From NCBI RefSeq assembly GCF_004306155.1, contig NZ_BIMR01000239.1, positions 1 to 35,302 of the forward strand: 35,302 bases of DNA, in the 5' to 3' direction. This document shows, one piece after another, positions 7,512 to 25,167 of this stretch (position 1 is the first letter of the stretch; the number at the start of each line of letters is the position of its first letter). Origin of the DNA: Cellulomonas biazotea. Its GTDB lineage: Bacteria; Actinomycetota; Actinomycetes; Actinomycetales; Cellulomonadaceae. The notes beneath the pieces are model-generated. The model did no database searches. It worked only from the letters and a program-made list of their open reading frames with translations, and had not been told where the DNA came from. The translations under genes and the position numbers were made by a program.

Positions 7512-7517
7512 AGGTTA
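7512..7517 (-). promoter_or_regulatory. Candidate -10 box for rmlD
   Basis: The minus strand reads TAACCT, a TANNNT match, about 60 bases upstream of the rmlD GTG. It lies in the 211-base divergent region between rmlD and the secreted amidase gene. No clear -35 element is seen. Confidence 0.3.
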
Positions 7518-7537
7518 GCCGTCCCCGCTGTGCCGAC

Positions 7538-7549
7538 GCACGTACGTGC
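7538..7549. promoter_or_regulatory. 12-bp perfect palindrome, possible operator
   Basis: GCACGTACGTGC reads the same on both strands and lies in the divergent region between rmlD and the amidase gene, just upstream of the rmlD -10 candidate. The position suits a shared operator, but no regulator gene is nearby and a palindrome of this size could occur by chance in GC-rich DNA. Confidence 0.3.
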
Positions 7550-7663
7550 ACGGCGGGGCCGCGCCCGTTGCTCGGGGCACCGGAGCCGGTCGGCGCGTCA
7601 GCCGCTCACGCGCCCGCGACCCTGGCAGCATGGGCCGGGTTCACCCGGAAGAAGGAGCCCGAG

Positions 7664-10533: not shown

Positions 10534-10573
10534 GGCACCGCCGCCGTCCGCGCCCGTGGACGGCGGCGGTGCC
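10534..10573 (+). terminator. Strong hairpin terminator after the amidase gene
   Basis: A perfect 16-bp stem (10534-10549 with 10558-10573) closes an eight-base loop, 20 bases past the amidase stop. No U-run follows, as is common in high-GC actinobacteria. It separates the amidase gene from the rmlC promoter just downstream. Confidence 0.75.
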
Positions 10574-10582
10574 ATGTCCGCG

Positions 10583-10588
10583 TAGATT
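10583..10588 (+). promoter_or_regulatory. Candidate -10 box for rmlC
   Basis: TAGATT matches TANNNT and lies directly after the hairpin. It would give a leader of about 30 bases that carries AAGGAG before the GTG at 10626. No good -35 hexamer is seen, because that position falls inside the hairpin. Confidence 0.45.
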
Positions 10589-10625
10589 TGCCCTGCGACA
10601 GGCCACCTCACGAAGGAGACACCCG

Positions 10626-11243
10626 GTGCAGTTCCGCGAGCTCAAGGTCCCCGGCGCCTGGGAGATCACCCCGAAGCAGATGGGCGACCCGCGAGGCGTC
10701 TTCCTGGAGTGGTTCAAGGACGAGACCTTCCAGCAGGCCGTCGGGCACCGCCTCGACCTGCAGCAGGCGAACTGCTCGGTGTCGGCCGCGGGCGTCCTGC
10801 GAGGCATCCACTTCGCCGACGTGCCGCCCGGCCAGGCGAAGTACGTGACGTGCGCGAAGGGCGCCGTGCTCGACGTCGTCGTCGACCTGCGCGTGGGCTC
10901 GCCGACGTTCGGCACCTGGGACTCCGTGCTGCTCGACGACGTCGACCGGCGCGCGATCTACCTGTCCGAGGGCCTCGGGCACGCGTTCCTGTCCCTCGAG
11001 GACGACTCGACCGTCCTGTACCTGTGCTCGACCGGCTACTCCCCCGGGCGCGAGCACGGCATCCACCCGCTCGACCCCGAGGTCGGGATCGCGTGGCCGA
11101 CGACGGACCGCGCGGGCCGTCCGCTCGAGCCGCTCCTGTCCGACAAGGACCTCGCCGCACCGTCGCTCGCCGAGGCGCTCGCGTCCGGCCTGCTGCCCGA
11201 CGCGTCGACCGTGAGCGCGTACGTCGCGTCGCTGGCGCGCTGA
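10626..11243 (+). CDS. rmlC: dTDP-4-dehydrorhamnose 3,5-epimerase
   Basis: This 205-residue cupin enzyme epimerises dTDP-4-keto-6-deoxy-D-glucose at C3 and C5 to give dTDP-4-keto-L-rhamnose, the substrate of RmlD. The hallmarks are DPRGVFLEWF, QANCSVS, GVLRGIHF with the catalytic His62, the VVVDLR strand, EGLGHAF, and Tyr138 in STGYSPGREHGI. The length is close to the usual 180-200 residues. The GTG at 10626 is supported by GAAGGAG upstream; the longer frame adds 19 basic residues. The GT4 gene 11248-12357 follows after four bases, so they form an operon. A C3-only epimerase for another deoxysugar is possible but less likely with rmlD nearby. Confidence 0.93.
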   Translation: MQFRELKVPGAWEITPKQMGDPRGVFLEWFKDETFQQAVGHRLDLQQANCSVSAAGVLRGIHFADVPPGQAKYVTCAKGAVLDVVVDLRVGSPTFGTWDSVLLDDVDRRAIYLSEGLGHAFLSLEDDSTVLYLCSTGYSPGREHGIHPLDPEVGIAWPTTDRAGRPLEPLLSDKDLAAPSLAEALASGLLPDASTVSAYVASLAR

Positions 11244-12372: not shown

Positions 12373-12411
12373 GACCACGGCCCGGCGCTCCGGCCGCGAC
12401 CGGCGGTGGTC
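12373..12411. terminator. Imperfect hairpin between convergent genes
   Basis: GACCAC at 12373-12378 pairs with GTGGTC at 12406-12411, and the inner GC-rich bases can extend the stem with mismatches. It fills the 52-base gap between convergent genes and overlaps the stop of 12410-13462. It could end transcription in both directions, but the stem is imperfect. Confidence 0.35.
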
Positions 12412-13462
12412 AGGAGGCGGGGCGCTGCGTGACGACGTCGGGCGCGACCGGCTCGTCCGCCGGGTCGTCCTGACCGGCCCGACGCCGCACGACCACGACC
12501 GCGACGAGCGCGGCGAGACCCGCGACCAGCAGGTCGCCGACCGTGAAGATCATGCGCGACGCGAGCGCCATGCCGGTCGCCTGGCCGGCGGCCATGGTCG
12601 TCGTGAGCGTGCCGACGATGACGGCCTCGCGGACGCCGACGCCCGACGGCAGGAACACCGCGAACAGGCCCGCGGTGAAGCCGATCGCCATGGTGCCCGC
12701 GCACAGCAGGATCGCGCCGAGGCCCGGGTCCACGAGGGAGTTCGCGAGCAGCCACAGGTGCACGCCGAACAGGCCGTAGGACAGCAGGGCCCAGCCGAAC
12801 GAGCGCGCCACGACGCTGACGCGCAGCGTGTGGTCGAGCGGCGGGCGCCGCAGCACGCGGAAGACGAGCGACGCGAGCCACGTCATGACCTTGGGGTGCA
12901 GGCACACGAGGCCGAGCGGCAGCAGCAGGAACAGCCACAGGAGCTCCTGGTGGCCGCCCTGGAGCATGACGGGGACGGCGGCGATGCCGAGCACCAGGGA
13001 CGCGACGACCCCGACGCCCGCGGCGAACAGGCTCGCGGCGAACACGCGGGCCCGCGCGACCCCGTACCGGCGGCCGAGCTCCATCTGCACGAGGTACGCC
13101 CAGACGGAGCCGGGGATGTACTTGCCGAGCTGGCCGACGAGGCAGATCTGCGAGCCGCGGGCGGCGCCGACCGGGGGGCCCATGTCGTCGAGCAGCGTCT
13201 GCCAGCTCTTCGCACCGGCGCCGAGGCCGAGCACGACGGCGAGGAACGAGAGGACCGCCGAGAGCACGTTCACCTGGGCGAGGACCTCGGAGACGTCGCC
13301 CCACTGCCGCACGACCTGCCACGACGCGGCGGCGACCACGAGGACGACGAGACCCCACCGCAGCACGACGAGCGCCCGCTGCCGGGTGGTGGGGGCGGTG
13401 CGCGCGGGCACGACGACGTCGGCCTCGGTGGCCGCACCCGACTGCACGGCCGCGGCGCTCAC
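12410..13462 (-). CDS. UPF0104/LPG synthase TM-type membrane protein
   Basis: This 350-residue integral membrane protein has about eight helices. It carries signatures of the lysylphosphatidylglycerol synthase transmembrane (UPF0104, AglD/MprF-like) family: VGQLGKYIPGSVWAYL, FLPSGVGVREAVIVG and a closing SRMIFTVGDLLVAGL. Relatives act as lipid flippases or occur in polysaccharide loci with unknown roles. The GTG at 13462 has AGGAGG seven bases upstream and overlaps the stop of the LpxA-like gene by GTGA, so the two are co-translated. This coupling hints at handling of a lipid or lipid-linked sugar made with the acyltransferase. The exact substrate is unknown. Confidence 0.85.
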   Translation of the reverse strand: MSAAAVQSGAATEADVVVPARTAPTTRQRALVVLRWGLVVLVVAAASWQVVRQWGDVSEVLAQVNVLSAVLSFLAVVLGLGAGAKSWQTLLDDMGPPVGAARGSQICLVGQLGKYIPGSVWAYLVQMELGRRYGVARARVFAASLFAAGVGVVASLVLGIAAVPVMLQGGHQELLWLFLLLPLGLVCLHPKVMTWLASLVFRVLRRPPLDHTLRVSVVARSFGWALLSYGLFGVHLWLLANSLVDPGLGAILLCAGTMAIGFTAGLFAVFLPSGVGVREAVIVGTLTTTMAAGQATGMALASRMIFTVGDLLVAGLAALVAVVVVRRRAGQDDPADEPVAPDVVTQRPAS

Positions 13463-14154
13463 GACGCCACCTCCTTGGCCCACCAGACGAAGTGCGGGGC
13501 GAGCACCTCCGGCACGTCGTCCTCGCCGGGGACGTCGCCCGCGGCGTAGGCCGCCTGGACGAGCGCGACCGCTGCCGCGTCGACACCGAGGCGCTCCATG
13601 CCGACGGCGTTCGCGCCGTGGATCCGGGCCGGGTTGCCGAACGCGCGGGCGAAGGGCGGGACGTCGCGGGTGACGACGGCGCCCATGCCGACCATGGCGC
13701 CGGGACCGACGAGGCGGCGCTGGTGCAGCACCGCGCCGAGGCCGACGTTGGCCCGGTCGCCGATGCGGACGTGCCCGCCCATCGCGACGGTCGACGCGAG
13801 CGTGACGCCGTCGCCGATGCGCGAGTCGTGCGCCACGTAGACCTTGTTCATGATGAAGCAGTCGTCGCCGACGACCGTCTGCTCGTGCCAGCCCTGGTGG
13901 ATCAGCGCGTGCTCGCGGATGACGTTGCGCGACCCGATCCGGACACCGGCGGCCTCCTCGGGCGCCTCGTCCCACGGCTCGCCGTGCTCGACGCCGCGGA
14001 CCTCGGGGGGCGTGCCGATGACGACGCCCGGGCCGATCCAGTTGTCGTCGCCGACGACGAGAGGCCCGCACAGCACGGCGTGCGGGCCGATGACGTTGCC
14101 GTCGCCGAGGACCACTCCGTCCCCGATGACGGCGGTGCTGTGGATCGAGTTCAT
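13459..14154 (-). CDS. LpxA-like hexapeptide-repeat acyltransferase
   Basis: This 231-residue left-handed beta-helix protein resembles UDP-GlcNAc O/N-acyltransferases of the LpxA family along its length. It has an N-terminal hexapeptide ladder, RIGSRNVIREHALIHQG (LpxA-type IRE...IHRG), IMNKVYVAHDS with His109 at the LpxA catalytic His125 position, GGHV (His128), LHQ (His144) and GNPAR, plus a short helical C-terminus. LpxA starts lipid A synthesis in Gram-negatives, which an actinobacterium should not make. By manual alignment Tyr107 replaces LpxA His122, and Met157 sits at the chain-length ruler position. The ATG at 14154 has GGAGGACC before it. It is divergent from DegT and Gfo/Idh genes resembling gnnB and gnnA. 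I infer N-acylation of an amino sugar nucleotide; a plain acetyltransferase is the alternative. Confidence 0.88.
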   Translation of the reverse strand: MNSIHSTAVIGDGVVLGDGNVIGPHAVLCGPLVVGDDNWIGPGVVIGTPPEVRGVEHGEPWDEAPEEAAGVRIGSRNVIREHALIHQGWHEQTVVGDDCFIMNKVYVAHDSRIGDGVTLASTVAMGGHVRIGDRANVGLGAVLHQRRLVGPGAMVGMGAVVTRDVPPFARAFGNPARIHGANAVGMERLGVDAAAVALVQAAYAAGDVPGEDDVPEVLAPHFVWWAKEVAS

Positions 14155-14183
14155 GGTCCTCCGAGCGCAAGTCAGGCCCTTCG

Positions 14184-14189
14184 ATGGTA
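14184..14189 (-). promoter_or_regulatory. Candidate -10 box for the LpxA-like operon
   Basis: The minus strand reads TACCAT, a TANNNT match, giving a leader of about 23 bases before the ATG at 14154. It lies in the 228-base divergent region shared with the DegT gene. No -35 consensus is seen. Confidence 0.4.
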
Positions 14190-14334
14190 GCCCACTCGGC
14201 GCAACGGGCCGTCTCTCGGCACGCCATCGGCACGCGGTCGGCGCGCCCGCCGCGGGCATCCGCGAGACCACCGAGAGGCCGTCAGCACGCGGCAGAAGGC
14301 CCGGAGGCCCCACGGGCGACGGTCGACTCGCTGG

Positions 14335-14340
14335 TAGCGT
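14335..14340 (+). promoter_or_regulatory. Candidate -10 box for the DegT/Gfo operon
   Basis: TAGCGT matches TANNNT and would give a leader of about 35 bases carrying ACGAGG before the GTG at 14383. No -35 consensus is seen. Confidence 0.4.
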
Positions 14341-14382
14341 CGGCGCCGCCAACTTCCTCCCGTGACAAGACGAGGTTCGTCC

Positions 14383-15483
14383 GTGATCCCCATCTCCACC
14401 GTCGAGCTCGGTCCCGATGTCGAGGCCGAGGTCCTGAAGGTCCTGCGCTCGGGCATGGTCGCCCAAGGACCGGTCGTCGCCGAGTTCGAGCGCCGCTTCG
14501 CCGCGCTCACCGGCGTGCAGCACGCCGTCGCCGTGAACAACGGCACCACGGCCCTCGTGGCCGCCCTGCAGGTGCTCGACCTGGAGCCCGGTGACGAGGT
14601 CGTCACCAGCCCGTTCACGTTCGTGGCGACGCTCAACGCGATCCTCGAGGCCGGCGCCACGGCGACGTTCGCCGACATCGACGACGTCGACTTCAACCTC
14701 GCGCCCGACGCCGCGGCTGCCGCGATCGGCGACCGCACGCGCGTGCTCATGCCCGTGCACCTGTACGGGCAGACGGCGCCGATGGGCGAGCTCGCGCCGC
14801 TCGCGGCCGACCGCGGGCTCGCGCTCGTCGAGGACTCCGCGCAGTCGCACGGCGCCACGCTCGACGGGCGTGCGGCGGGCAGCTTCGGCATCGGCTGCTT
14901 CTCGTTCTACGGGACGAAGAACATCACGACCGGTGAGGGCGGCATCATCACCACGGACGACGACGTCCTGGCCGACCGCCTGCGCGTGCTGCGCAACCAG
15001 GGCATGCGCGCCCGCTACCAGTACGAGGTCGCGGGCCACAACTACCGCCTCACGGACCTGCAGGCCGCGCTCGCGCTCCCCCAGCTCGACCGGTACGAGC
15101 AGACCGTCGCCCGCCGCAAGGCCAACGCCGCGACGCTCGTCGAGGGCCTCGCCGGCATCCCCGGCCTCGTGCTGCCGCAGGAGCTGCCCGGGCGCTCGCA
15201 CGTCTGGCACCAGTTCACCGTCCGCGTGACGCAGGACGCCGCCGTCTCGCGCGACGAGCTCGTGGCCCGCCTCACCGAGGCCGGCGTCGGCAGCGGCATC
15301 TACTACCCCAAGCTCGTGTTCGACTACGAGACCTACCTGACGCACCCGCGCGTCAAGGTCAGCGAGGTCCCGACCGCCGCACGCGTCGTGCAGGAGGTCG
15401 TCTCCCTGCCCGTGCACCCGCGGCTGTCGGACGACGACCTGCGCACGGTCGTCGACACCGTCCGCTCGATCCTGGGGGCCTGA
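14383..15483 (+). CDS. DegT/DnrJ/EryC1/StrS-family sugar aminotransferase (GnnB-like candidate)
   Basis: This PLP-dependent enzyme of 366 residues transfers an amino group to a keto-sugar nucleotide. Family marks are VNNGTTALVAALQ, SPFTFVATLNAILEAGA, the aspartate in LVEDSAQSHGA, and the PLP lysine in FYGTKNITTGEGG (Lys179 from this start). The GTG at 14383 is chosen because ACGAGG lies seven bases upstream; the GTG at 14362 would add seven residues and has no ribosome site. The Gfo/Idh dehydrogenase follows after three bases. Dehydrogenase plus DegT enzyme beside an LpxA homologue is the GnnA/GnnB arrangement known from Acidithiobacillus, where UDP-GlcNAc gains a 3-amino group. I infer the same reaction type; the sugar is not proven. 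Confidence 0.92.
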   Translation: MIPISTVELGPDVEAEVLKVLRSGMVAQGPVVAEFERRFAALTGVQHAVAVNNGTTALVAALQVLDLEPGDEVVTSPFTFVATLNAILEAGATATFADIDDVDFNLAPDAAAAAIGDRTRVLMPVHLYGQTAPMGELAPLAADRGLALVEDSAQSHGATLDGRAAGSFGIGCFSFYGTKNITTGEGGIITTDDDVLADRLRVLRNQGMRARYQYEVAGHNYRLTDLQAALALPQLDRYEQTVARRKANAATLVEGLAGIPGLVLPQELPGRSHVWHQFTVRVTQDAAVSRDELVARLTEAGVGSGIYYPKLVFDYETYLTHPRVKVSEVPTAARVVQEVVSLPVHPRLSDDDLRTVVDTVRSILGA

Positions 15484-15486
15484 GCC

Positions 15487-16452
15487 GTGGCCGCACCACG
15501 CATCCTGCTCGTCGGCGCCGGCTCGATGGGGTCGCTGCACGCGCGCGTCACCGCCGGGCACCCGCAGGCCGAGCTCGCGACCGTCGTCGACACGCGCGAG
15601 GACGCCGGACGGGCGCTCGCCGACCGGTTCGGCGCGCGGTGGCAGCCGGAGATCGGCTCGCTGTCGGGGGTCGACGCGGTCATCGTCGCCGCCGCGACCG
15701 AGGCACACTTCGAGCTCGCGAAGCAGGTCATCGAGGCCGGTGTGCCGCTGCTCGTCGAGAAGCCCGTCACGGACCGGCTCGAGCAGACGATCGAGGTCCT
15801 CGAGCTGTCGGAGCAGCGCGACGTGCCCGTCATGTGCGGCCTGCTCGAGCGCTACAACCCGGCCGTCCTGACCGCCCGGTCGATCCTCGAGGAGCCCATC
15901 CACGTCACGGGCGTGCGGCACTCCCCCTACGCGCCGCGGATCAAGACCGGCGTCGCGTGGGACCTGCTCGTGCACGACGTCGACCTCGCGTTCCAGGTCC
16001 TGCCCGGCGAGGTCGTCGGCGTGGAGGCCGTCGTGGGCCAGTTCCACCCGTCGTCGGTGCCCGGCGCCGAGGACGTCGTGGAGGCGCTCCTGCGCTTCGG
16101 GTCGGGCGCCGTCGCGAGCGTGTCGGCGAGCCGACTCGGCCAGCGCAAGGTCCGCACGCTGACGATCAACGAGGTCGACAAGCTCATCGAGGTCGACCTG
16201 CTGCGGCGCGACGTCACCGTGTACCGGCACGTCTCGGCCGAGGCCGCGACGTCGGACGGCCGCGGCTACCGCCAGCAGACCATCATCGAGATCCCCGAGC
16301 TCGTCACGTCGCAGGAGCCGCTCGCGGCCCAGCTCGACCGGTTCCTCGGCCTCGTGGCCGGCACGGTCGACGCCGCCGAGGAGCGCGCGGGCATCCTGCC
16401 CTCGCACCGGGTCGTCGCCCGGGCCAAGGAGGTCGCGGCCGCGTCCGTCTGA
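15487..16452 (+). CDS. Gfo/Idh/MocA-family sugar dehydrogenase (GnnA-like candidate)
   Basis: This 321-residue NAD-dependent oxidoreductase starts with the Rossmann loop ILLVGAGSMGSLHARV. It has the family EKP motif in LLVEKPVTD, then CGLLERYNPAVLTA and an active-site DLLVHDVDLAF histidine. The ERYNPAV segment resembles the ERFNPAV signature I associate with UDP-N-acetylglucosamine 3-dehydrogenases (GnnA type). Such an enzyme oxidises the sugar 3-OH to a ketone that the adjacent DegT aminotransferase would aminate. The GTG at 15487 lies three bases after that gene's stop. The 3' end faces the GT4 gene at 16487-17671. Other Gfo/Idh sugar oxidations, such as WlbA-type, remain possible. Confidence 0.9.
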   Translation: MAAPRILLVGAGSMGSLHARVTAGHPQAELATVVDTREDAGRALADRFGARWQPEIGSLSGVDAVIVAAATEAHFELAKQVIEAGVPLLVEKPVTDRLEQTIEVLELSEQRDVPVMCGLLERYNPAVLTARSILEEPIHVTGVRHSPYAPRIKTGVAWDLLVHDVDLAFQVLPGEVVGVEAVVGQFHPSSVPGAEDVVEALLRFGSGAVASVSASRLGQRKVRTLTINEVDKLIEVDLLRRDVTVYRHVSAEAATSDGRGYRQQTIIEIPELVTSQEPLAAQLDRFLGLVAGTVDAAEERAGILPSHRVVARAKEVAAASV

Positions 16453-16486: not shown

Positions 16487-17671
16487 TCAGCGTCCCGCCG
16501 TCATCTCCGCCAGCACGTCGAGGTGCTGGTCGAGCACGCGCTCGAGCGCGAACGACTCCTGCACCACACGGGCCGCGTTGGCGCCCACGCGGGCCGCGAG
16601 CTCGCGGTCCACGAGCGCCTCGACGAGCGCGTCGGACAGCGCCGCCGAGTCGCCCACGGGGACGAACCACAGGTGCTCGCGGTGGCCCAGCTCGATCGTC
16701 GGGAAGTTGTCCTTGCGGGCCGGTGCGACGACGGGCACACCCGCCGCCATGGCCTCGAGCGTCGCGGTGCCGAGACCGATGCCCTGCTCGTGGGACTCGA
16801 CCGACGCCGCGGCGAGGAAGTCCGGCACGGACGACTTGGGCACCGCGCCCGTGGCGACGACCGAACCCGCGACGCCGAGCTCCTCGGCGCGGCGCAGGAA
16901 CGGGTCGTAGTAGACGCGCCCGACGACGACGAGGCGCGCGTCCGGCACCGACTCGAGCACGCGCGGCATGGCCTCGACGAGGGCCACGCGGTCGCGCAGC
17001 GGGATGACGTGCCCGAGCGACAGGATGATCGGCACGTCGTCGGCGAGGCCGAGCGCGGCGCGCGCGACGGACCCGTCGCCGCCGGTGGTCCACGCCGGGT
17101 CGACGCCGACCGGGATGTACTCCAGGCCGCTGTACGCGCCGCGGTACCGGCTCTTGACGTACTCGTCCATGAGCACGTCCATGATCACGACCCGCGGCCG
17201 GTCGACCCGCAGGTTCGGCTTGACCATGAGGGCGTCGAGGAGCCGGAAGACGCCGTGGTAGTGCGCCTTCGGGTTCTCCAGCCGGGTGTGCACGCTCAGC
17301 AGCACCGGGATCCCGCGGCGGCGCGCGTACAGCCCGGTCGCCCAGGACAGGTCGAAGAACTGCCCGTGCTGGTGGATGACGTCGGGGCGGAACGCGTCGA
17401 GCTCGGCCGCGAGCCTGCGCCACAGCGACGGTCGCGTCGCGAACGAGATGTCGAACGACACCGCGAGACGCGTCTCGGGGAGCGCGAACGACGGCAGCCG
17501 GACGATGGTGATCCCGTCGCGCTGCTCCCGGGCGGGGGCGTCGGCGTAGGCCGCCGTGACGACGAGGACCTCGTGCCCGCGGGCCGCGTACCCCCGGGCG
17601 AGCGCGTCCGCGAGGTGCGAGCTGCCGCCGACCCGGGGCGGGTAGAAGTTGTTGACGACGACGATCCTCAT
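16487..17671 (-). CDS. GT4-family glycosyltransferase
   Basis: This 394-residue GT-B enzyme begins RIVVVNNFYPPRVGGSSHL, the classic GT4 N-terminal glycine loop. It has DVIHQHGQFFDLSWATGL and LLSVHTRLENP in the acceptor domain. In the donor domain, GHVIPLRDRVALVEAM and EQGIGLGTATLEAMAAGVPVV stand in for the EX7E region. It belongs to a different GT4 subgroup from the three PRKN/EGFGLP-type enzymes in the window. The ATG at 17671 overlaps the acetyltransferase stop by ATGA. It ends a tightly coupled run of acetyltransferase and epimerase genes, so it probably transfers the sugar they make. Confidence 0.92.
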   Translation of the reverse strand: MRIVVVNNFYPPRVGGSSHLADALARGYAARGHEVLVVTAAYADAPAREQRDGITIVRLPSFALPETRLAVSFDISFATRPSLWRRLAAELDAFRPDVIHQHGQFFDLSWATGLYARRRGIPVLLSVHTRLENPKAHYHGVFRLLDALMVKPNLRVDRPRVVIMDVLMDEYVKSRYRGAYSGLEYIPVGVDPAWTTGGDGSVARAALGLADDVPIILSLGHVIPLRDRVALVEAMPRVLESVPDARLVVVGRVYYDPFLRRAEELGVAGSVVATGAVPKSSVPDFLAAASVESHEQGIGLGTATLEAMAAGVPVVAPARKDNFPTIELGHREHLWFVPVGDSAALSDALVEALVDRELAARVGANAARVVQESFALERVLDQHLDVLAEMTAGR

Positions 17672-18120
17672 GCGCCGCCGTCACCTCCGACCGGCACGAA
17701 CTCGGGCCGGCTCCCGTCACCCGCGTCCTCGACCCGGGCGACGACGCGCGCCGGGACCCCGGCGACGACCGCGCCGGCGGGGACGTCGCGCGTGACGACG
17801 GCCCCCGCCCCGACGACCGCGCCGTCACCGATGGTCACGCCCATCTGCACGACGGCGTTGGCACCGATGAACACCCGGTCGCCGATGTGCACGGCGGCAC
17901 GCTCGACCGTCGGGTACGCCCGCCCGGACACGCAGCGGCGCGCGCTGGAGTGCGTGTAGATCTGCGCGCCCGCGCTGATGTCGCACCCGGCGCCGATGGT
18001 CAGCCCGCCCGACCCGTCGACGACGGTGAACGCGCCGATCCAGGTGCCGTCACCGATCTGCGGCTCCCCGACGATCCACGCGAGCTCGTGGTAGGGGTTC
18101 GGCGGGAGGGTCGCCGGCAT
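17668..18120 (-). CDS. Hexapeptide-repeat sugar acetyltransferase
   Basis: This 150-residue left-handed beta-helix protein has repeated [IV]G-x4 turns: QIGDGTWIGAFTVV, LTIGAGCDISAG, VHIGDRVFIGANAVV and VTIGDGAVVGAGAVVTRDV. It ends with AGVPARVV, the common acetyl-CoA-site tail. His in IYTHSS is a likely catalytic residue. The family acetylates amino or hydroxyl groups on sugars with acetyl-CoA. The ATG at 18120 overlaps the epimerase stop by ATGA, and the gene's own stop overlaps the GT4 start the same way. With an aminotransferase just upstream, N-acetylation of a newly made amino sugar is the leading idea. It is not the same type as the LpxA-like protein at 13459-14154. Confidence 0.88.
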   Translation of the reverse strand: MPATLPPNPYHELAWIVGEPQIGDGTWIGAFTVVDGSGGLTIGAGCDISAGAQIYTHSSARRCVSGRAYPTVERAAVHIGDRVFIGANAVVQMGVTIGDGAVVGAGAVVTRDVPAGAVVAGVPARVVARVEDAGDGSRPEFVPVGGDGGA

Positions 18121-19052
18121 CAGCCGCCGTTCCGGATGAGGTCGGTCATGCCGTCGCGCACGGCGATCGTCGACTCGAAGCCGAGGACGTCCTTCGCGCG
18201 CTGGATGTCCGCCGCCCGGCGCGAGACGAGGACGTCGCGCGGGTTGAAGATCGGCTCCACGTCGCTGCCGACGGCGTCGATGAGGATGCGCGCCAGGTCG
18301 GCGATCGACGTGTCGATGCCCGTGCCGACGTTGACGGGGACGTTCGCCTTCTCGGAGGTGAGCGCGAGCACGACGGAGCGCGCGATGTCGTGGACGTGGA
18401 TGAAGTCCATCGACTGCTCGCCCTTGCCGTCGATGACGGGCGCCTCGCCGTTGCGCAGCCGGTTGACGAAGTGGTTGATGACCGACGTGTAGTACGCGGT
18501 CGTCTTCTGGCCGGGGCCGTACACGTTGAAGAACCGCAGCGCGATCCACGAGAGGTTCGCGCGGCGCTGGTAGTAGCCGAGGAGGTCCTCGCCCGCGCGC
18601 TTCGAGATGCAGTACGGGGTGAGCGGCGACAGCGTGTCGTCCTCGTGCATCGGCAGCTTCTCGGGGTCGCCGTAGACCGACGCGCTGGACGCGAACACGA
18701 GCCGCTCCACGCCGTGGTCCGCGGCGGCCGCGAACACGTTGTGGTTGCCGATCATGTTGATGTCCATCGACTCGTACGGGTCGGACTGGCTCTTGTTGAT
18801 CGACACCGCGGCGAGGTGGATGACGTGGCTCGCACCCTTCATCGCCTGGTGGACGGCGCCGCCGTAGCGCACGTCCTGGTCGATGAGCTCGACGTCGCCC
18901 GTCGCGGCGAGCGCGGCGACCTTGTCGCGGTCACCCCGGAACATGTTGTCGAAGATGCGGACCTTGTAGTCCTGCTCGAGCAGCATCGGGACGACGTGGA
19001 GGCCGATGAAGCCGGCACCACCGGTAATGAAGACGGTCTTCTTGTCTGCCAT
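18120..19052 (-). CDS. NAD-dependent epimerase/dehydratase (GalE-like SDR)
   Basis: This 310-residue extended SDR has FITGGAGFIGLHVVPMLL at the N-terminus (TGGAGFIG at 10-17), HLAAVSINKS, SSASVYGDPEKLP, the catalytic pair in TPYCISKRAGE (Tyr147, Lys151), RFFNVYGPGQ and FIHVHDIARSV. These fit UDP-glucose 4-epimerase-like or 4,6-dehydratase-like enzymes acting on nucleotide sugars. No glycine-rich TGxxGxxG change is seen, so it should be active. The ATG at 19052 is preceded by AAGGAG at a rather long spacing of 12 bases; a longer frame upstream is arginine-rich. It sits 61 bases after the DegT aminotransferase gene and overlaps the acetyltransferase gene, making an amino-sugar module. Confidence 0.92.
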   Translation of the reverse strand: MADKKTVFITGGAGFIGLHVVPMLLEQDYKVRIFDNMFRGDRDKVAALAATGDVELIDQDVRYGGAVHQAMKGASHVIHLAAVSINKSQSDPYESMDINMIGNHNVFAAAADHGVERLVFASSASVYGDPEKLPMHEDDTLSPLTPYCISKRAGEDLLGYYQRRANLSWIALRFFNVYGPGQKTTAYYTSVINHFVNRLRNGEAPVIDGKGEQSMDFIHVHDIARSVVLALTSEKANVPVNVGTGIDTSIADLARILIDAVGSDVEPIFNPRDVLVSRRAADIQRAKDVLGFESTIAVRDGMTDLIRNGG

Positions 19053-19113
19053 GACGAACAGTTGCTCCTTGGTCCGTGCGGGGGTGGTTCGAAAACGGGG
19101 GGGTCGCCGGTGG

Positions 19114-20253
19114 TCAGCGGCGCGACGTCGGCGCGGTGACGACGTCCCGCACGACCTCGGCCACACGCTCGACCTGCGCGTCCGTCAGGTTGGCGTGCAT
19201 CGGCACCGCGAGGTGCCGGGCGAAGAGGTCGGCCGAGACCGGCAGGCTCTGCCGTCCACCATAGACGGGCTGCACGTGCGACGCGTACGTGCCGAAGTTG
19301 CACTGGACGCCCCGCGCGCGCAGCTCGAGAGCGACGACGCCGCGGTCCAGGCTCGGGTCGAGCGTGAGGACGTAGGACTGCCACGGGTGCTCGCGGTCGT
19401 CGAGCGCCGCGGGCAGCGTGACGAGGTCCAGGTCGCCCAGCAGCTCGGCGTAGCCGGCGGCCGCGCGGCGGCGGTTCGCGAGCAGCTCGGGCAGGCGACG
19501 GACCTGGACGCGCATGATCGCGGCGGCCACGTCGGAGAGCCGGTAGTTGTAGCCCGCCTCGTCGAACGACGGCACGGGCAGCTCGCGCGCACCCTCACGC
19601 GACAGCGCCGGCTCGATGCCGTAGGTGTGCAGCTTGCGCGCGTGCCGGGCCAGGTCCTCGCGGTCGGTCGTGAGCGCGCCGCCCTCGCCGGCGGTGATGC
19701 CCTTGCGGCCGTGGAAGCTGAACGTGGCGACGTCGGCGAGCGAGCCGGCGGGACGGCCCTTGTAGGTCGCGCCCGCGCTGCACGCCGCGTCCTCCATGAG
19801 CCACAGGCCGTGCTTGTCGGCGATGGCCCGCAGCTCGTCGTAGTCGGCGGGCTGGCCGAACACGTCGACGGCGACGATGCCGACGGTGCGCTCGGTGATC
19901 GAGGCCTCGACGGACGCCGGGTCGGCGCTCCAGATGTCGGGACGGACGTCGGCGAAGACGGGCGTCGCGCCGGTCCACATGACCGAGTGGCCGGTGGCCG
20001 GGAACGTGTAGTCGCCGACGATGACCTCGTCGCCGGGGCCGGCGCCGAGCACGTCGAGCCCGAGGTGCAGGGCCGAGCCGCAGTTCGACGTCGCGAGCAC
20101 GTGCTCGGTGCCGGACACGGCCGCGAACTCGGCCTCGAACGCCTGGCACGCGGGACCGGCGCCGGACAGCCAGCCGGAGGCGAACACCTCGGCGATCGCC
20201 TCGAGCTCCTCGGCGCCGACGGTGGGCTGTCCGAGCGGGACGACCTCGGTCAT
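19114..20253 (-). CDS. DegT/DnrJ/EryC1/StrS-family sugar aminotransferase (second copy)
   Basis: This 379-residue PLP enzyme has TSNCGSALHLGLDVLG, the aspartate in LMEDAACSAGATYKG, the PLP lysine in SFHGRKGITAGEGG (Lys184) and the closing GYNYRLSDVAAAI. It differs from the copy at 14383-15483 in the lysine region (HGRKGITAGEGG against YGTKNITTGEGG) and belongs to another subgroup, more like 4-keto-sugar aminotransferases such as PglE/RfbE (inference). The ATG at 20253 has AGGAG a few bases upstream. The epimerase, acetyltransferase and GT4 genes follow on the same strand. It probably aminates the keto sugar in that module. Confidence 0.92.
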   Translation of the reverse strand: MTEVVPLGQPTVGAEELEAIAEVFASGWLSGAGPACQAFEAEFAAVSGTEHVLATSNCGSALHLGLDVLGAGPGDEVIVGDYTFPATGHSVMWTGATPVFADVRPDIWSADPASVEASITERTVGIVAVDVFGQPADYDELRAIADKHGLWLMEDAACSAGATYKGRPAGSLADVATFSFHGRKGITAGEGGALTTDREDLARHARKLHTYGIEPALSREGARELPVPSFDEAGYNYRLSDVAAAIMRVQVRRLPELLANRRRAAAGYAELLGDLDLVTLPAALDDREHPWQSYVLTLDPSLDRGVVALELRARGVQCNFGTYASHVQPVYGGRQSLPVSADLFARHLAVPMHANLTDAQVERVAEVVRDVVTAPTSRR

Positions 20254-20302: not shown

Positions 20303-22342
20303 TCAGGCCGGCGGCGTGATCGTGTAGAGGTGGTAGGTGGCGAGAGGCGCCTGCACCGTGCTCTGCAGCTCGAGGCACGGCTGGTCGATCGGGCGGTCGG
20401 AGAGGACGTTCTCGGCGATCGACTGCTCGAACGGCGCGCACGAGTCGAAGCTCACCCGGATCTGGTCGCCCGCGGGGTTCCAGATGCGCGGCTGGTCGGG
20501 GTCGACGCTCCAGCCGACGTTCGCGAACCGGTTCCAGTTGAGCTCGTAGCGGCCGGACGGGTCGAGCTCCGACCACATCTCCGCGTTCGGGGCGCCCTGG
20601 AACGCGTTGAACCCGTCGACGCCGGTCTCGGTGAGGATCGGCCCGACCATCGCGTCGCCGACGCCGATCCAGCGGCCCGGGTTCTCCTCGTCCTGCGCCT
20701 CGACGGCCTGGGCGACGTCGGTCTCGCGCAGGTCGAACACCCCCCGGTACAGCGGGTTCACCCAGCCGCCGACGACGCCGCTGACGAGCAGGAACAGCCC
20801 GGCGGCGGCCGCCACCCGACGGCGCGCGAACAGCACCACCGACAGCGCGAAGGCCAGGACGATGACGATCCACGGGCCGGCGGCGGCGAGCACCGCGGGA
20901 CGGTCGGACAGGACGCGCCACAGCACGAGGTGCGCGACGACCACGACAGCCCCGAGCCCGCCCGCGAGCCACCAGGGGGCCCGCAGGTCCTCGGCGTCGA
21001 GCGCCCGGACGGTGACGCCGATGAGCACGATCGACAGCAGGCCGAGCCCGATGAGCATCCGGCCCGGGGTCACGCGGTCGAGGAGCAGCAGGTGCGCGAC
21101 GACGTCCCAGCCGGGCACGTAGAGGAACGCGACGAGGACGACGCCGCAGATCAGCGGGTACAGGATCGTCCGGTCGAGCGGCAGGCGACGACGCCGCTGA
21201 CGGACGAGCAGCCAGATGCCCACGGCGGCGAGGAACGCGCCGACGAACACGAAGGTCGACGCCTCGGAGGCGTTGGGCCGCAGCCCGTACGACGACCCGT
21301 CGCGCAGCGCGAGACCGAAGGCGCCCGCGAAGCTGGCCTCCTTGTCCGGGTCGTCGAGCCCGGCACCGGCCTCCGTCAGGCGCTGGCCGGGGTACACCGT
21401 CTCGAGGAACGCGGTGACCGTGTCCCACCGGGTGAGCAGGAAGACGACCATGACGGCCGCGGCCGCCGCCGCGGCGACCCCGAGCGGGAGCAGCCGCCGC
21501 AGGCGCGTCGTGACCGGGACGTCGGCGTCCCTGCGCAGCACCCACCCGAGGGCGAAGAAGGCCGCGACGTACGCGCTCGGCACGAGGAACGGCGCGTAGA
21601 TGCCCAGCGCGGCGGTCACCGAGACGTACCCCACGACGGCGGCCCAGGTCCACCGGTGCCCGCGGGACGCGCCACTGCTGACCCAGATCACCCCGGTCAT
21701 GAGCAGGAGCGCCCAGGCGGCCGGCCACAGCGTCTGCGGCAGGTACCACCACTGGAAGAAGGGGGCGACGAAGAACCCGACGGACACGAGCGCCGCCGAG
21801 CCGGGGCGCCGTGGCCACAGCGACGTGAGGAACATCGAGCACGCGACCGCGAGCGCCGCTCCCGGCAGCCACCACTTGAGCGCGAAGGCGTTGTCGAGCG
21901 GGAGGAAGAAGAACCCGAGGTTGTGCGGCCGGAAGGCGGCCGACCACTCGGCGTACGGCACCTCCCACAGCATCGACATGTCGACGCCGCCCGGCATCGC
22001 CTCGTTGCGCAGCGGCAGGCCCTCCTCGACCTGGGACACCGTCCACACGGTCTGGACGATCCACTCGTCGCTACGGATGGCCTGCGGCTTGAGCAGGAGC
22101 AGGTCGGGGTCGGCGCCCGTCTCGAACCAGTCGTGCACGACGCCTGACGAGGAGCCGCTGATCCCGAGCGAGACGAGGGTGACGAGCGCGAGCAGGACCG
22201 CGGCCGGGAACGCGAGCAGGACGCGGGCGCGGGGCAGGCCGTCGGGCCGCGGCTCGGTCCATCGCTGCCACCGGCCCGGGCGCGCCGTCGCGTCGTCCGC
22301 GCCGGTGGTCGGGACCGCCGTCGTCGCGGTCGGGTCGTTCAC
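20303..22342 (-). CDS. Giant polytopic GT-C-like membrane protein (copy 2)
   Basis: This 679-residue protein is a paralogue of 3601-5583. A cytoplasmic N-terminus of about 40 residues precedes the first helix (about 41-61). The outer loop then has AIRSDEWIVQT (SDEW at 91-94), AMPGGVDMSMLWEVPYAEW, FRPHNLGF and LPLDNAFALKWWLPG, followed by many helices. A soluble C-terminal domain contains ENPGRWIGVGDAMVG and ends YHLYTITPP. The same order of motifs in both proteins shows common ancestry. By analogy it would act outside the membrane on polyprenyl-linked sugar, but no biochemical role is known to me. The GTG at 22342 is the predicted start. A candidate promoter lies at 22379-22384, and the DegT gene follows after 49 bases. 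Confidence 0.85.
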   Translation of the reverse strand: MNDPTATTAVPTTGADDATARPGRWQRWTEPRPDGLPRARVLLAFPAAVLLALVTLVSLGISGSSSGVVHDWFETGADPDLLLLKPQAIRSDEWIVQTVWTVSQVEEGLPLRNEAMPGGVDMSMLWEVPYAEWSAAFRPHNLGFFFLPLDNAFALKWWLPGAALAVACSMFLTSLWPRRPGSAALVSVGFFVAPFFQWWYLPQTLWPAAWALLLMTGVIWVSSGASRGHRWTWAAVVGYVSVTAALGIYAPFLVPSAYVAAFFALGWVLRRDADVPVTTRLRRLLPLGVAAAAAAAVMVVFLLTRWDTVTAFLETVYPGQRLTEAGAGLDDPDKEASFAGAFGLALRDGSSYGLRPNASEASTFVFVGAFLAAVGIWLLVRQRRRRLPLDRTILYPLICGVVLVAFLYVPGWDVVAHLLLLDRVTPGRMLIGLGLLSIVLIGVTVRALDAEDLRAPWWLAGGLGAVVVVAHLVLWRVLSDRPAVLAAAGPWIVIVLAFALSVVLFARRRVAAAAGLFLLVSGVVGGWVNPLYRGVFDLRETDVAQAVEAQDEENPGRWIGVGDAMVGPILTETGVDGFNAFQGAPNAEMWSELDPSGRYELNWNRFANVGWSVDPDQPRIWNPAGDQIRVSFDSCAPFEQSIAENVLSDRPIDQPCLELQSTVQAPLATYHLYTITPPA

Positions 22343-23937: not shown

Positions 23938-23976
23938 GGGGGCTTTCGTGTGCCGGTCGAACAAGGAGTGCGTGAC

Positions 23977-25167
23977 GTGGCGCGGATCGCAGTGGTCGGG
24001 AGCGGCATCGTGGGGCTGGCGACGGCCGCACGGCTCGCCGAGCGGGGTGACGAGGTCGTCGTCCTCGACAAGGAGACGTCGCTCGCGAGCCACCAGACGG
24101 GCCGCAACTCGGGCGTCGTGCACTCCGGCATCTACTACGCGCCCGGCAGCCACAAGGCGCTCATGAGCCGCGCCGGAGCGGAGTCGATCCTGCGGTTCGC
24201 CGCGGACCACGGGATCCCCGCCGAGCGCACGGGCAAGCTCATCGTCGCGACCCGGCCCGACCAGACCCCCCAGCTGCAGAAGCTGGCCGCGCGCGCCGAG
24301 GCGAACGGCATCGACGCGCAGGTCCTGTCCCCCGAGCAGGCGCGCGAGCACGAGCCCCACGTGGCGGCGGTCGCCGCGCTGCACGTCGGCTCGACGGGGA
24401 TCATCGACTACCCGGCGGTGTGCCGCCGGCTCGCCGAGATCGTCAGGGAGCACGGCGGGGAGGTGCGGCTCGGCACACGCGTGCTGTCGTCGCGCACCGT
24501 GCAGGGCTCCGTGCACGTCGAGACCGACGCGGGCACGGTCGTCGTCGACGGGCTCGTCGCGTGCGCCGGCCTCTACTCCGACACGCTCGCGCGCGCGTCG
24601 GGCCTCGACGTGGACGTGCGCATCGTGCCGTTCCGCGGCGAGTACTTCGAGCTCGTGCCCGAGCGCGAGCACCTCGTGCAGGGGCTGATCTACCCCGTGC
24701 CCGACCCGCGCTTCCCGTTCCTCGGCGTGCACCTCACGCGGTCCGTCGGCGGCGGCGTGCACGCCGGCCCCAACGCGGTCCTGGCCCTCGCACGCGAGGG
24801 GTACACGCGCTCCGCCGTCGTGCCCGGCGAGCTCGCCGAGAGCCTGCGGTGGCCCGGGCTGTGGCGCCTGGGGGCCCGCAACCTCGTGCCCGGCGCCCGC
24901 GAGGTCGCGCGGTCGTTCTCCCGCCGCCTGTTCGCGGCGAGCCTCGCCGAGCTCGTCCCGGCCGTGCGCCGCCAGGACCTCGTGCCCGCGCCCGCCGGGG
25001 TCCGGGCGCAGGCGCTGCGCCGCGACGGCACGCTCGTCGACGACTTCCTCGTCGAGCGGACCGACCGGCAGGTGCACGTGCTCAACGCACCCTCGCCCGC
25101 GGCGACCGCGTCGCTGGAGATCGCGCGCTACGTGGTCGACGAGCTCGACGCCGTGATGGCCCGATAG
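23977..25167 (+). CDS. lhgO: L-2-hydroxyglutarate oxidase-like FAD enzyme
   Basis: This 396-residue flavoprotein of the DAO/LhgO family has the FAD-binding IAVVGSGIVGLATAARLAE at the N-terminus, then HQTGRNSGVVHSGIYYAPGS, VDGLVACAGLYSD, FRGEYFELVPE, YPVPDPRFPFLGVHLTR and PAPAGVRAQAL near the end. These are the conserved blocks of L-2-hydroxyglutarate oxidase/dehydrogenase, which oxidises L-2-hydroxyglutarate to 2-oxoglutarate. The GTG at 23977 is supported by AAGGAG eight bases upstream, in place of the GTG at 23950. It is the one apparent metabolic gene in a glycan locus and seems to be a single-gene unit. It may be unrelated to the glycan, or may act on a 2-hydroxy acid linked to it. Confidence 0.9.
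   Translation: MARIAVVGSGIVGLATAARLAERGDEVVVLDKETSLASHQTGRNSGVVHSGIYYAPGSHKALMSRAGAESILRFAADHGIPAERTGKLIVATRPDQTPQLQKLAARAEANGIDAQVLSPEQAREHEPHVAAVAALHVGSTGIIDYPAVCRRLAEIVREHGGEVRLGTRVLSSRTVQGSVHVETDAGTVVVDGLVACAGLYSDTLARASGLDVDVRIVPFRGEYFELVPEREHLVQGLIYPVPDPRFPFLGVHLTRSVGGGVHAGPNAVLALAREGYTRSAVVPGELAESLRWPGLWRLGARNLVPGAREVARSFSRRLFAASLAELVPAVRRQDLVPAPAGVRAQALRRDGTLVDDFLVERTDRQVHVLNAPSPAATASLEIARYVVDELDAVMAR

What the first reader, a model, noticed from the sequence alone, without database searches (positions are those of the whole stretch)
12410..16452. LpxA-like, DegT and Gfo/Idh genes form a gnnA-gnnB-lpxA-like set in a Gram-positive
GnnA oxidises and GnnB aminates UDP-GlcNAc at C3, and LpxA then N-acylates it, in Gram-negatives such as Acidithiobacillus and Leptospira. 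Here the three families sit together around one 228-base divergent promoter, with a UPF0104 lipid-flippase-type protein coupled to the LpxA-like gene. An actinobacterium does not make lipid A, so this may build an acylated 2,3-diamino sugar for a wall glycan or an unknown glycolipid.
Basis: partly seen in the sequence, partly recalled or inferred. Interest (0 to 1): 0.82.

Follow-up and report, generated by a model that had tools for sequence, protein, structure and literature searches.

The report
Wall amino-sugar genes, not endotoxin
A Gram-positive bacterium carries a conserved set of three genes that probably makes an unusual amino sugar for its cell wall; one of the three enzymes is a distant cousin of the enzyme that starts endotoxin synthesis in Gram-negatives, and in a related branch of that cousin the gene often sits with its own acyl-supply genes.

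Summary
In detail: a UPF0104 protein, an LpxA-like acyltransferase, a DegT aminotransferase and a Gfo/Idh dehydrogenase lie at 12410-16452, and 50 of 60 related actinobacterial loci hold the last three together. The dehydrogenase is nearest to GnnA by sequence and fold. The LpxA-like protein is not a lipid A LpxA: it joins Pcryo_0615, a solved N-acetyltransferase of a diacetamido sugar, in a clade (99/99) apart from lipid A enzymes, and a bulky residue replaces Gly155 of the acyl site, so a short acyl group is expected. The aminotransferase lies outside the GnnB/WbpE/QdtB/DesV clade, so C3 amination is inferred. LpxC and LpxB are not found. Best reading: a UDP-GlcNAc-derived, N-acetylated amino sugar for a rhamnose-type wall polysaccharide. 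Unexpected: in a sister clade, mostly Pseudonocardiaceae, 29 of 37 loci carry an acyl-supply cassette (AMP ligase with LuxC or LuxE homologues; a carrier-protein ORF in 27), against 0 of 23 loci of the window's own grade; there the acyl group is probably special. A new variant of a known kind.

The parts
12410..13462 (-). UPF0104 / LPG_synthase_TM (PF03706) membrane protein, start overlaps the stop of the LpxA-like gene
   Evidence: Pfam 42.2 bits, cut-off 33.4; homologue in 44 of 60 related loci, directly downstream of the LpxA-like gene in 14 of 60
13459..14154 (-). LpxA-like left-handed beta-helix acyltransferase, 231 aa; probable N-acetyltransferase of a UDP-amino sugar
14155..14382 (.). 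228-base intergenic region between the two divergent gene pairs
   Evidence: sequence; no sigma-70-type promoter found
14383..15483 (+). DegT/DnrJ/EryC1 sugar aminotransferase (ORF open from 14362)
   Evidence: PF01041 393.5 bits; own subfamily, outside the C3-type clade; lysine followed by an EGG signature in 52 of 52 homologues over 300 bits
15487..16452 (+). Gfo/Idh dehydrogenase, GnnA-like
   Evidence: PF01408 74 bits; nearest GnnA 7bvj by sequence and fold; EKP motif in 55 of 55 and His-Asp motif in 52 of 55 non-reference rows
16487..17671 (-). GT4 glycosyltransferase, recurrent neighbour
   Evidence: PF00534/PF13439; homologue in 30 of 60 loci
17668..18126 (-). hexapeptide acetyltransferase, recurrent neighbour
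   Evidence: PF14602; 33 of 60 loci
18120..19079 (-). NAD-dependent epimerase/dehydratase, recurrent neighbour
   Evidence: PF01370 181 bits; 34 of 60 loci (includes distant homologues)
19114..20253 (-). second DegT aminotransferase
   Evidence: PF01041 340 bits; separate clade 100/100; 17 of 60 loci
23950..25167 (+). L-2-hydroxyglutarate oxidase family protein at the edge of the module
   Evidence: NCBIfam NF008726 519 bits, cut-off 299; 14 of 60 loci

Best explanation
The three genes make a nucleotide-linked amino sugar for a wall polysaccharide. Inferred steps: the Gfo/Idh enzyme oxidises UDP-GlcNAc, most likely at C3, with NAD; the DegT enzyme aminates the keto sugar; the LpxA-like trimer N-acylates the new amine with a short acyl group, most likely acetyl from acetyl-CoA, giving UDP-GlcNAc3NAc or a close relative. 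The product is used by glycosyltransferases of this rhamnose-type cluster; the UPF0104 protein may serve the membrane end of the same process. No lipid A and no fatty-acylated product is made. Shown here: gene identity, conserved association, phylogenetic position, kept catalytic residues, changed pocket residues. Not shown: any substrate, product or quaternary structure.
For: Conserved trio: 50 of 60 loci. Gfo/Idh: GnnA first by sequence (91 bits) and fold (Z 35.9, 295 aligned), NCBIfam best match UDP-GlcNAc 3-dehydrogenase (130 bits, under its cut-off 450), EKP in 55 of 55 rows. LpxA-like: best solved sequence match 8e62 at 129 bits (Burkholderia LpxA 111, P. aeruginosa LpxA 101, E. coli and Leptospira LpxA 85, WlbB 34); 8e62 is titled Pcryo_0615, an N-acetyltransferase required to produce a diacetamido-2,3-dideoxy sugar; one clade with it, 99/99, apart from lipid A LpxA. 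His125, His144 and His160 kept in the window protein; Gly155 replaced by Leu/Met/Ile in 61 of 61 actinobacterial rows but kept in 21 of 21 rows of the lipid A group, and Gly173 replaced by Met in 61 of 61. G173M shortens the acyl chain of E. coli LpxA from C14 to C10, and Gly155 and Gly173 contact a bound peptide inhibitor (PMC6408518, passages); Gly151 of the P. aeruginosa enzyme, which I take to be the equivalent of Gly155, lies in the acyl pocket (PMC6820557, passages). LuxE (weak control), LpxC and LpxB not found in the genome. Rhamnose genes and an ABC-2 exporter with Wzt_C lie in the window. A 6-dehydrogenase homologue lies in only 1 of 60 related loci.
Against: The DegT protein is not in the clade of the C3-type enzymes, so amination may be at another carbon. 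The Gfo/Idh clade is on a long branch from GnnA, WlbA was not in that tree, and GenD2 ties with GnnA by fold (Z 35.4). By fold alone the LpxA-like model is closer to LpxA (Z 29.5, 213-220 residues) than to Pcryo_0615 (Z 25.9, 181 of 183 residues), and Foldseek ranks several LpxA structures above it; in part this reflects the shorter chain. Met or another non-Gly residue at 173 is not special to this group: 9 of 21 lipid A group rows have no Gly there, 2 of them Met. The Tyr that replaces His122 is shared with Pcryo_0615 but found in only 15 of 24 rows of the window's grade. That Pcryo_0615 is an N-acetyltransferase comes from its entry title; its paper is not held. GlcNAc3NAc has not been shown in this organism.
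Confidence: 0.5

Rival explanations
1. One reading: a GnnA-GnnB-LpxA pathway that attaches a fatty acyl chain to UDP-GlcNAc3N, for an unknown glycolipid or acylated wall glycan.
For: GnnA-like dehydrogenase; LpxA fold over 213-220 residues including C-terminal helices; catalytic residues kept; coupled UPF0104 protein.
Against: LpxA-like protein outside lipid A LpxA, 99/99; Gly155 and Gly173 both bulky; about one N-terminal rung missing (model residue 1 aligns at E. coli residue 23); DegT outside the GnnB-type clade; LpxC and LpxB not found; no acyl cassette in the window and no LuxE in its genome.
Confidence: 0.1
2. The acyl group is a short hydroxyacyl (such as 3-hydroxybutyryl) carried by an acyl carrier protein: supplied by the dedicated cassette in the sister clade and, in the window's genome, by house-keeping fatty acid synthesis.
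For: 29 of 37 clade B loci have an AMP ligase with LuxC or LuxE homologues, 27 of 37 a carrier-protein ORF (one example matches PF00550); clade B keeps His122 (35 of 37) and mostly Arg205 (24 of 37) as the lipid A group does (21 and 14 of 21); the same gene types lie in flagellin glycosylation islands of Enterobacteriaceae (PMC4875605, passages), in Dickeya together with the sugar aminotransferase gene vioA (PMC7575072, passages).
Against: 0 of 23 other loci of the window's own grade have the cassette, nor has the window; the window's protein has Tyr in place of His122, as in Pcryo_0615.
Confidence: 0.2
3. Amination is at C4 (or another carbon), not C3: the DegT enzyme belongs with perosamine-synthetase-like C4 enzymes.
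For: DegT subfamily nearest to perosamine synthetase in the tree, weakly (80/61); EGG signature as in the two C4 references and not GDGG as in the five C3-type rows (read; counts). The use of this signature to tell C3 from C4 rests only on these seven sequences.
Against: Both partners point to C3: GnnA-like dehydrogenase and Pcryo_0615-like acyltransferase. Gfo/Idh plus DegT pairs that aminate C3 of other sugars (kanamycin, gentamicin) are recalled, not tested.
Confidence: 0.15
4. The sugar is further oxidised to a diacetamido-uronic acid (GlcNAc3NAcA or ManNAc3NAcA) of a teichuronic acid, by a 6-dehydrogenase coded elsewhere.
For: Two NDP-sugar 6-dehydrogenases over the cut-off elsewhere in the genome; Streptomyces teichuronic acids contain these sugars (PMC13274773, passages); one related locus, L043, has a 6-dehydrogenase homologue beside the LpxA-like gene.
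Against: No 6-dehydrogenase over the cut-off in the window and a homologue in only 1 of 60 related loci within the stretches fetched; the Gfo/Idh protein is GnnA-like, not WlbA-like.
Confidence: 0.12

Closest known systems
Pcryo_0615 of Psychrobacter cryohalolentis (PDB 8e62), N-acetyltransferase of a diacetamido-2,3-dideoxy sugar pathway
   Same: Best solved sequence match of the LpxA-like protein (129 bits); same clade 99/99; shares Tyr122, Met173, Arg162 and a bulky residue 155 (E. coli numbering)
   Different: Shorter (189 aa against 231; its alignment begins at model residue 19); long branch and unresolved place within the clade
LpxA of lipid A synthesis
   Same: Same fold along the whole chain; His125, His144, His160, Gln161, Asn198, Arg204 kept
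   Different: Separate from it in the tree; Gly155 and Phe162 changed, Gly173 to Met; LpxC and LpxB not found
GnnA of Acidithiobacillus ferrooxidans (PDB 7bvj), UDP-GlcNAc 3-dehydrogenase
   Same: Nearest solved relative of the Gfo/Idh protein by sequence and fold
   Different: 27% identity, long branch
gnnA-gnnB-lpxA-like set of a gammaproteobacterial symbiont (L083)
   Same: Same three protein families side by side
   Different: There the proteins match GnnA (239 bits), the C3-type aminotransferases (294-392 bits) and E. coli LpxA (312 bits) far better
Wbp / Utr pathway to UDP-GlcNAc3NAcA and UDP-ManNAc3NAcA (Pseudomonas; Streptomyces teichuronic acid)
   Same: Dehydrogenase, aminotransferase and N-acetyltransferase; product in an actinobacterial wall (PMC10622841, PMC13274773, passages)
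   Different: 6-dehydrogenase among its genes, WbpD/WlbB-type acetyltransferase (34 bits here), WbpE-type aminotransferase
Flagellin glycosylation islands with acp, fabG, fadD/caiC, luxE, luxC
   Same: Same acyl-supply gene types as in clade B
   Different: Not in the window; no LpxA-like acyltransferase is named in the passages seen

Membership tests
Lipid A LpxA | Left-handed beta-helix fold like LpxA | tested here: met
   model pLDDT 95; Z 29.5, 213-220 residues aligned, rmsd 1.9-2.1
Lipid A LpxA | Catalytic His125 with His144, His160, Arg204 | tested here: met
   all present in the window protein
Lipid A LpxA | Falls among lipid A LpxA in a tree | tested here: not met
   outside, 99/99; the lipid A group itself is not resolved as one clade (24% of bootstrap trees)
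Lipid A LpxA | Gly at position 155 of the acyl site | tested here: not met
   Leu in the window; 0 of 61 actinobacterial rows have Gly, 21 of 21 lipid A group rows do
Lipid A LpxA | Curated family score | tested here: not met
   170 bits against 226 (NF003657) and 152 against 231 (TIGR01852)
Lipid A LpxA | Partners LpxC and LpxB in the genome | tested here: not met
   none found at E <= 0.001; the same searches ring in E. coli
Lipid A LpxA | Uses 3-hydroxyacyl-ACP | not testable with these tools
   needs an assay
Pcryo_0615-type N-acetyltransferase | One clade with Pcryo_0615 | tested here: met
   99/99 for the clade of actinobacterial rows, 8e62, L082, L019 and L076; the exact sister of 8e62 is unresolved
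Pcryo_0615-type N-acetyltransferase | Acetylates the 3-amine of a UDP-GlcNAc3N sugar with acetyl-CoA | not testable with these tools
   needs an assay
GnnA | Closest solved enzyme is GnnA | tested here: met
   91 bits, Z 35.9 with GenD2 tied at 35.4
GnnA | One clade with GnnA in a tree that holds WlbA | tested here: inconclusive
   nearer to GnnA than to inositol dehydrogenases but on a long branch; WlbA sequence not at hand
GnnA | Curated UDP-GlcNAc 3-dehydrogenase score (archaeal model) | tested here: not met
   130 bits against 450
GnnB / C3 aminotransferase | Falls in the clade of C3-type aminotransferases | tested here: not met
   17 DEGT1 rows (of 52 at hand) form their own clade 100/99 outside the clade of L083, WbpE, QdtB, DesV and 7b0d, 100/100; the C3 labels of QdtB and DesV are recalled, that of WbpE from PMC10622841, 7b0d and L083 are placed by the tree
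GnnB / C3 aminotransferase | PLP lysine kept | tested here: met
   lysine in the SF...K...EGG stretch in 52 of 52 homologues; that it is the PLP lysine is recalled
Wbp/Utr diacetamido-uronic acid pathway | 6-dehydrogenase in the cluster | tested here: not met
   none over the cut-off in the window; two elsewhere in the genome; 1 of 60 related loci
Wbp/Utr diacetamido-uronic acid pathway | WbpD/WlbB-type acetyltransferase | tested here: not met
   WlbB 3mqg 33.8 bits against 129 for 8e62

The most novel reading that the evidence does not exclude
Actinobacteria without lipid A run their own branch of the LpxA family on wall sugars. In clade B the enzyme takes a special, non-acetyl acyl group from a dedicated carrier protein that is served by its own AMP ligase, LuxE and LuxC homologues and a FabG-like reductase, so that a Gram-positive wall glycan or glycolipid carries an N-acyl diamino sugar made in a way analogous to, but separate from, the first step of endotoxin synthesis; the window's type is the acetyl-using or short-acyl form of it.
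Probability: 0.3. Interest if true: 0.75.

Novelty: new variant of a known kind. Interest (0 to 1): 0.5.

Why it matters
If true, LpxA-type acyltransferases are not tied to lipid A: a separate, patchily spread branch N-acylates amino sugars of actinobacterial walls. It would give a gene handle for diamino sugars of cell-wall glycopolymers in Amycolatopsis, Rhodococcus and Actinotalea, and the clade B cassette makes a specific and easily tested prediction of a non-acetyl N-acyl group. It also warns annotators that proteins named LpxA in actinobacteria do not signal endotoxin.

Tried and rejected
Considered and dropped: the LpxA-like gene as a lipid A gene; the trio as a Wbp-type pathway. The Gfo/Idh protein as an inositol dehydrogenase: TIGR04380 94 bits and 4hkt 70 bits, behind the UDP-GlcNAc 3-dehydrogenase model and GnnA, and far off in the tree.

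Led nowhere: a search of 369 gammaproteobacterial genomes for Pcryo_0615-like proteins at E <= 1e-28 found none, with no positive control; a first script for a carrier protein with too strict a pattern gave 0 of 28 and was replaced after reading translations of five loci; a first motif pattern for DegT missed 34 of 52 rows and was replaced; a first script for 6-dehydrogenases took wrong reading frames as queries and was replaced. The MAFFT alignment around E. coli LpxA 72-81 is unreliable, so Asp74 and Lys76 are not discussed. Pro at 191 is shared with Pcryo_0615 but also found in 8 of 21 lipid A group rows, so it is not used.

The 60 count L060, the 60 count L018 in its place; L060 and L018 look like one contig (equal length), as do L020 and L080. 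L060 and L020 were left out of trees and residue counts. L021 was kept only in the first LpxA tree, L022 there and; second, LpxD-like hits were kept, and three of them as outgroup. They were called LpxD, and several rows of the lipid A group called LpxA, from operon position, ORF sizes (seven loci) and tree place, not from family scans. L059 was left out of the Gfo/Idh tree because its match is split. The careful LpxA tree uses 55 of 95 rows, the DegT tree 17 of 52 DEGT1 and 9 DEGT2 rows, chosen by hand for spread. 'Clade A' of the scripts is a grade, not a clade, in the careful tree (3 changes). The odds of the uronic acid rival were lowered from 0.2 to 0.12.

Papers: PMC13274773, PMC10622841, PMC8040287, PMC3342949, PMC4875605, PMC7575072, PMC3087551, PMC6408518, PMC6820557, PMC4322802: passages only. 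The Pcryo_0615 paper (Protein Sci. 2023, doi 10.1002/pro.4502) was seen only as a reference in PMC10622841. A search for a print account of LpxA-like enzymes in actinobacteria and one of LuxE/LuxC with O-antigen genes gave listings in which I saw none; this is not proof of absence.


Full report
WHAT IS THERE. The window is GC-rich and codes for a large surface-glycan cluster: RmlC (10569-11243), RmlD (6598-7551), several GT2 and GT4 glycosyltransferases, an ABC-2 exporter with a Wzt_C domain (30783-32827) and two DUF7657/DUF7654 membrane proteins. In its middle lie two divergent pairs. On the minus strand an LpxA-like gene (13459-14154, 231 aa) overlaps by GTGA the start of a UPF0104/LPG_synthase_TM gene (12410-13462). 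On the plus strand a DegT gene (14383-15483) is followed after three bases by a Gfo/Idh gene (15487-16452).

IS IT MORE THAN CHANCE. A scan of genomes with an alignment of four LpxA-like proteins gave 80 loci, the best of a longer, capped list. Of 60 actinobacterial loci, 50 also hold homologues of the DegT and Gfo/Idh proteins (in L024 the Gfo/Idh is distant). DegT and Gfo/Idh are adjacent on one strand in 48 of 60, LpxA-like and DegT are divergent with less than 600 bp between the matches in 40 of 60, and UPF0104 is directly downstream of the LpxA-like gene in 14 of 60 and somewhere in the locus in 44 of 60. Other genes of the window recur too: the GT4 at 16487 (30 of 60), the acetyltransferase at 17668 (33), the epimerase at 18120 (34, distant homologues included), the second DegT at 19114 (17) and the L-2-hydroxyglutarate oxidase family protein at 23950 (14). 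The nearest relative cluster is that of Actinotalea solisilvae (L023), with 74% identity for the LpxA-like, 80% for the DegT and 77% for the Gfo/Idh protein. The gene is patchy: at E <= 1e-15 it is found in 1 of 101 genomes of the window's family sample, its own, and in 6 of 396 of a phylum sample.

THE LPXA-LIKE PROTEIN. Its best solved relative by sequence is 8e62 (129 bits), then Burkholderia LpxA (111) and P. aeruginosa LpxA (101); E. coli and Leptospira LpxA score 85, and the 3-N-acetyltransferase WlbB 34. The fold search names 8e62 as Pcryo_0615 of Psychrobacter cryohalolentis, an N-acetyltransferase required to produce a diacetamido-2,3-dideoxy sugar; the paper itself is not held. The predicted model (mean pLDDT 95) aligns to LpxA over 213-220 residues at Z 29.5 and to Pcryo_0615 over 181 of its 183 residues at Z 25.9; Foldseek, too, ranks LpxA structures first and Pcryo_0615 nineteenth. 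Fold alone thus favours LpxA, sequence favours Pcryo_0615. Model residue 1 falls on E. coli residue 23, so about one rung is missing at the N-terminus. In a maximum-likelihood tree of 55 rows rooted on three LpxD-like rows, the actinobacterial proteins, Pcryo_0615 and three others form one clade with 99/99 support, apart from 14 rows that group with E. coli and solved LpxA; a 95-row quick tree agrees. The place of Pcryo_0615 inside that clade is not resolved.

Residues were counted in 24 rows of the window's grade, 37 of clade B and 21 of the lipid A group. His125, His160, Gln161 and Asn198 are kept in 82 of 82. Gly155 is Gly in 21 of 21 lipid A group rows and in 0 of 61 actinobacterial rows. 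Position 173 is Met in 61 of 61 actinobacterial rows; in the lipid A group it is Gly in 12, Met in 2 and another residue in 7 of 21, so 155 tells more than 173. G173M turns E. coli LpxA from a C14 into a C10 enzyme, and Gly155 and Gly173 contact a bound peptide inhibitor (PMC6408518, passages); Gly151 of the P. aeruginosa enzyme, which I take as the equivalent of Gly155, lies in the acyl pocket (PMC6820557, passages). Pcryo_0615 has Met at both places. A short acyl group is therefore the likelier substrate. This is inference from sequence, not a measured activity.

THE GFO/IDH PROTEIN. The best solved match is 7bvj (91 bits), before an inositol dehydrogenase (70) and WlbA (25). 7bvj is GnnA of Acidithiobacillus ferrooxidans, and it also leads by fold: Z 35.9, with GenD2 tied at 35.4, KanD2 34.2 and WlbA 32.6. 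The best NCBIfam model is the archaeal UDP-GlcNAc 3-dehydrogenase, below its cut-off (130 against 450 bits). The EKP motif is present in 55 of 55 non-reference rows and the His-Asp motif in 52 of 55. In the tree the actinobacterial clade is nearer to GnnA than to the inositol dehydrogenases but on a long branch, and WlbA was not available for it.

THE DEGT PROTEIN. This is the weakest link. A gnnB candidate (L083) scores 294-392 bits with 7b0d, QdtB, WbpE, DesV and 8e75 and 224 with perosamine synthetase. The window's protein scores the same with DesV (226) and perosamine synthetase (226) and less with ArnB (206) and WbpE (188). In a tree of 33 rows, 17 DEGT1 rows form their own clade (100/99), outside the clade of L083, WbpE, QdtB, DesV and 7b0d (100/100) and weakly next to perosamine synthetase (80/61). 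That QdtB and DesV act at C3 is recalled; for WbpE it is in PMC10622841 (passages). All 52 DEGT1 proteins over 300 bits carry an EGG signature after the lysine, as the two C4 references do, whereas the five C3-type rows carry GDGG (read). That nitrogen goes to C3 is therefore inferred from the two partner enzymes only.

A SET THAT DOES LOOK LIKE GNNA-GNNB-LPXA. A gammaproteobacterial symbiont (L083) has an LpxA with 312 bits to E. coli LpxA and 70 to Pcryo_0615, beside a Gfo/Idh protein with 239 bits to GnnA and a DegT protein of the C3-type clade. Its LpxA falls among lipid A enzymes. The window's trio is a different thing.

CONTEXT IN THE GENOME. LpxC and LpxB are not found, while the same searches ring in E. 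coli. Two NDP-sugar 6-dehydrogenases over the cut-off lie elsewhere in the genome, none in the window, and with these two as queries only 1 of 60 related loci, L043, has a homologue in the stretch fetched. So a uronic acid is possible but not coded in the cluster. 2,3-Diacetamido sugars are already known in actinobacterial walls: Streptomyces griseus and S. antibioticus teichuronic acids hold ManNAc3NAcA and GlcNAc3NAcA, predicted by the authors to be made by utr genes in a pathway like the Pseudomonas one (PMC13274773, passages).

AN UNEXPECTED FIND IN THE SISTER CLADE. Clade B has 37 rows in the quick tree (SH-aLRT 98) and 99/99 support for the 17 sampled in the careful tree; most are Pseudonocardiaceae. 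In its loci, 29 of 37 have an AMP-binding ligase with LuxC or LuxE homologues, and 27 of 37 have, somewhere in the locus, a small ORF with the pattern WDS[VLIMAT]GH[ML] of a carrier protein; one such ORF matches PF00550 just over its cut-off (21.7 against 20.8 bits). A FabG-like SDR lies downstream of the LpxA-like gene on the same strand in 27 loci (its 28 less the copy L020). One representative each of SDR, AMP ligase, LuxE and LuxC was checked with Pfam, all over the cut-offs; by NCBIfam the LuxE and LuxC matches are remote (61 against 550 and 42 against 750 bits). The order seen in Amycolatopsis loci is LpxA-like, carrier protein, SDR, AMP ligase, LuxE, LuxC. The 8 clade B loci without it are L034, L044, L045, L069, L072, L073, L074 and L081, one of them (L044) cut short by its contig end. 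In the window's own grade 0 of 23 other loci have it, nor has the window, and LuxE was not found in the window's genome, a search whose controls rang in only 1 of 14 genomes. Clade B also keeps His122 (35 of 37) and mostly Arg205 (24 of 37) like the lipid A group; the window has Tyr and Leu, Pcryo_0615 Tyr and Ser; in the window's grade the Tyr is found in 15 of 24 rows. The same gene types are found in flagellin glycosylation islands of Enterobacteriaceae (PMC4875605, passages), in Dickeya with the aminotransferase gene vioA (PMC7575072, passages). So in clade B a special acyl group is likely, and in the window's type acetyl is likelier. Cassette and clade go together at one place on the tree, so this is one event and not a statistical test.

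VERDICT. The best-supported mechanism is N-acetylation or short-chain N-acylation of a UDP-GlcNAc-derived amino sugar by a separate branch of the LpxA family.

Noticed in passing
L066:8740-8979 and clade B loci (for example L047, L051, L058, L059, L066): Acyl-supply cassette near the LpxA-like gene: carrier protein, FabG-like SDR, AMP ligase, LuxE and LuxC homologues; ligase with LuxC or LuxE in 29 of 37 clade B loci, 0 of 23 loci of the window's grade.
   Followed up: partly
window 17668-20253: A second amino-sugar set (acetyltransferase, epimerase/dehydratase, DegT) that recurs with the first in many actinobacterial loci; its sugar is unknown.
   Followed up: partly
window 23950-25167: An L-2-hydroxyglutarate oxidase family gene (519 bits, cut-off 299) lies in this glycan module in 14 of 60 loci; why is unclear.
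   Followed up: no
window 3601-5583 and 20303-22342: Two copies of a large membrane protein with DUF7657 and DUF7654, unknown function, in one glycan cluster.
   Followed up: no
window 7661-10513 and 25253-28174: A peptidoglycan amidase-like protein and another large protein share many copies of a repeat of the type SGWALDPDT...VHVYVDG; perhaps wall- or glycan-binding repeats.
   Followed up: no
L083:7977-10844: A set that looks like gnnA-gnnB-lpxA in a gammaproteobacterial symbiont; its genome has a second LpxA-like match.
   Followed up: partly
L086:9601-10560: A GnnA-like Gfo/Idh gene inside an apparent lpx operon (judged by LpxA match and ORF sizes) of a deltaproteobacterial MAG.
   Followed up: partly
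L043:6643-7914: The only one of 60 loci with an NDP-sugar 6-dehydrogenase homologue (42% identity, 313 bits), directly beside the LpxA-like gene.
   Followed up: no
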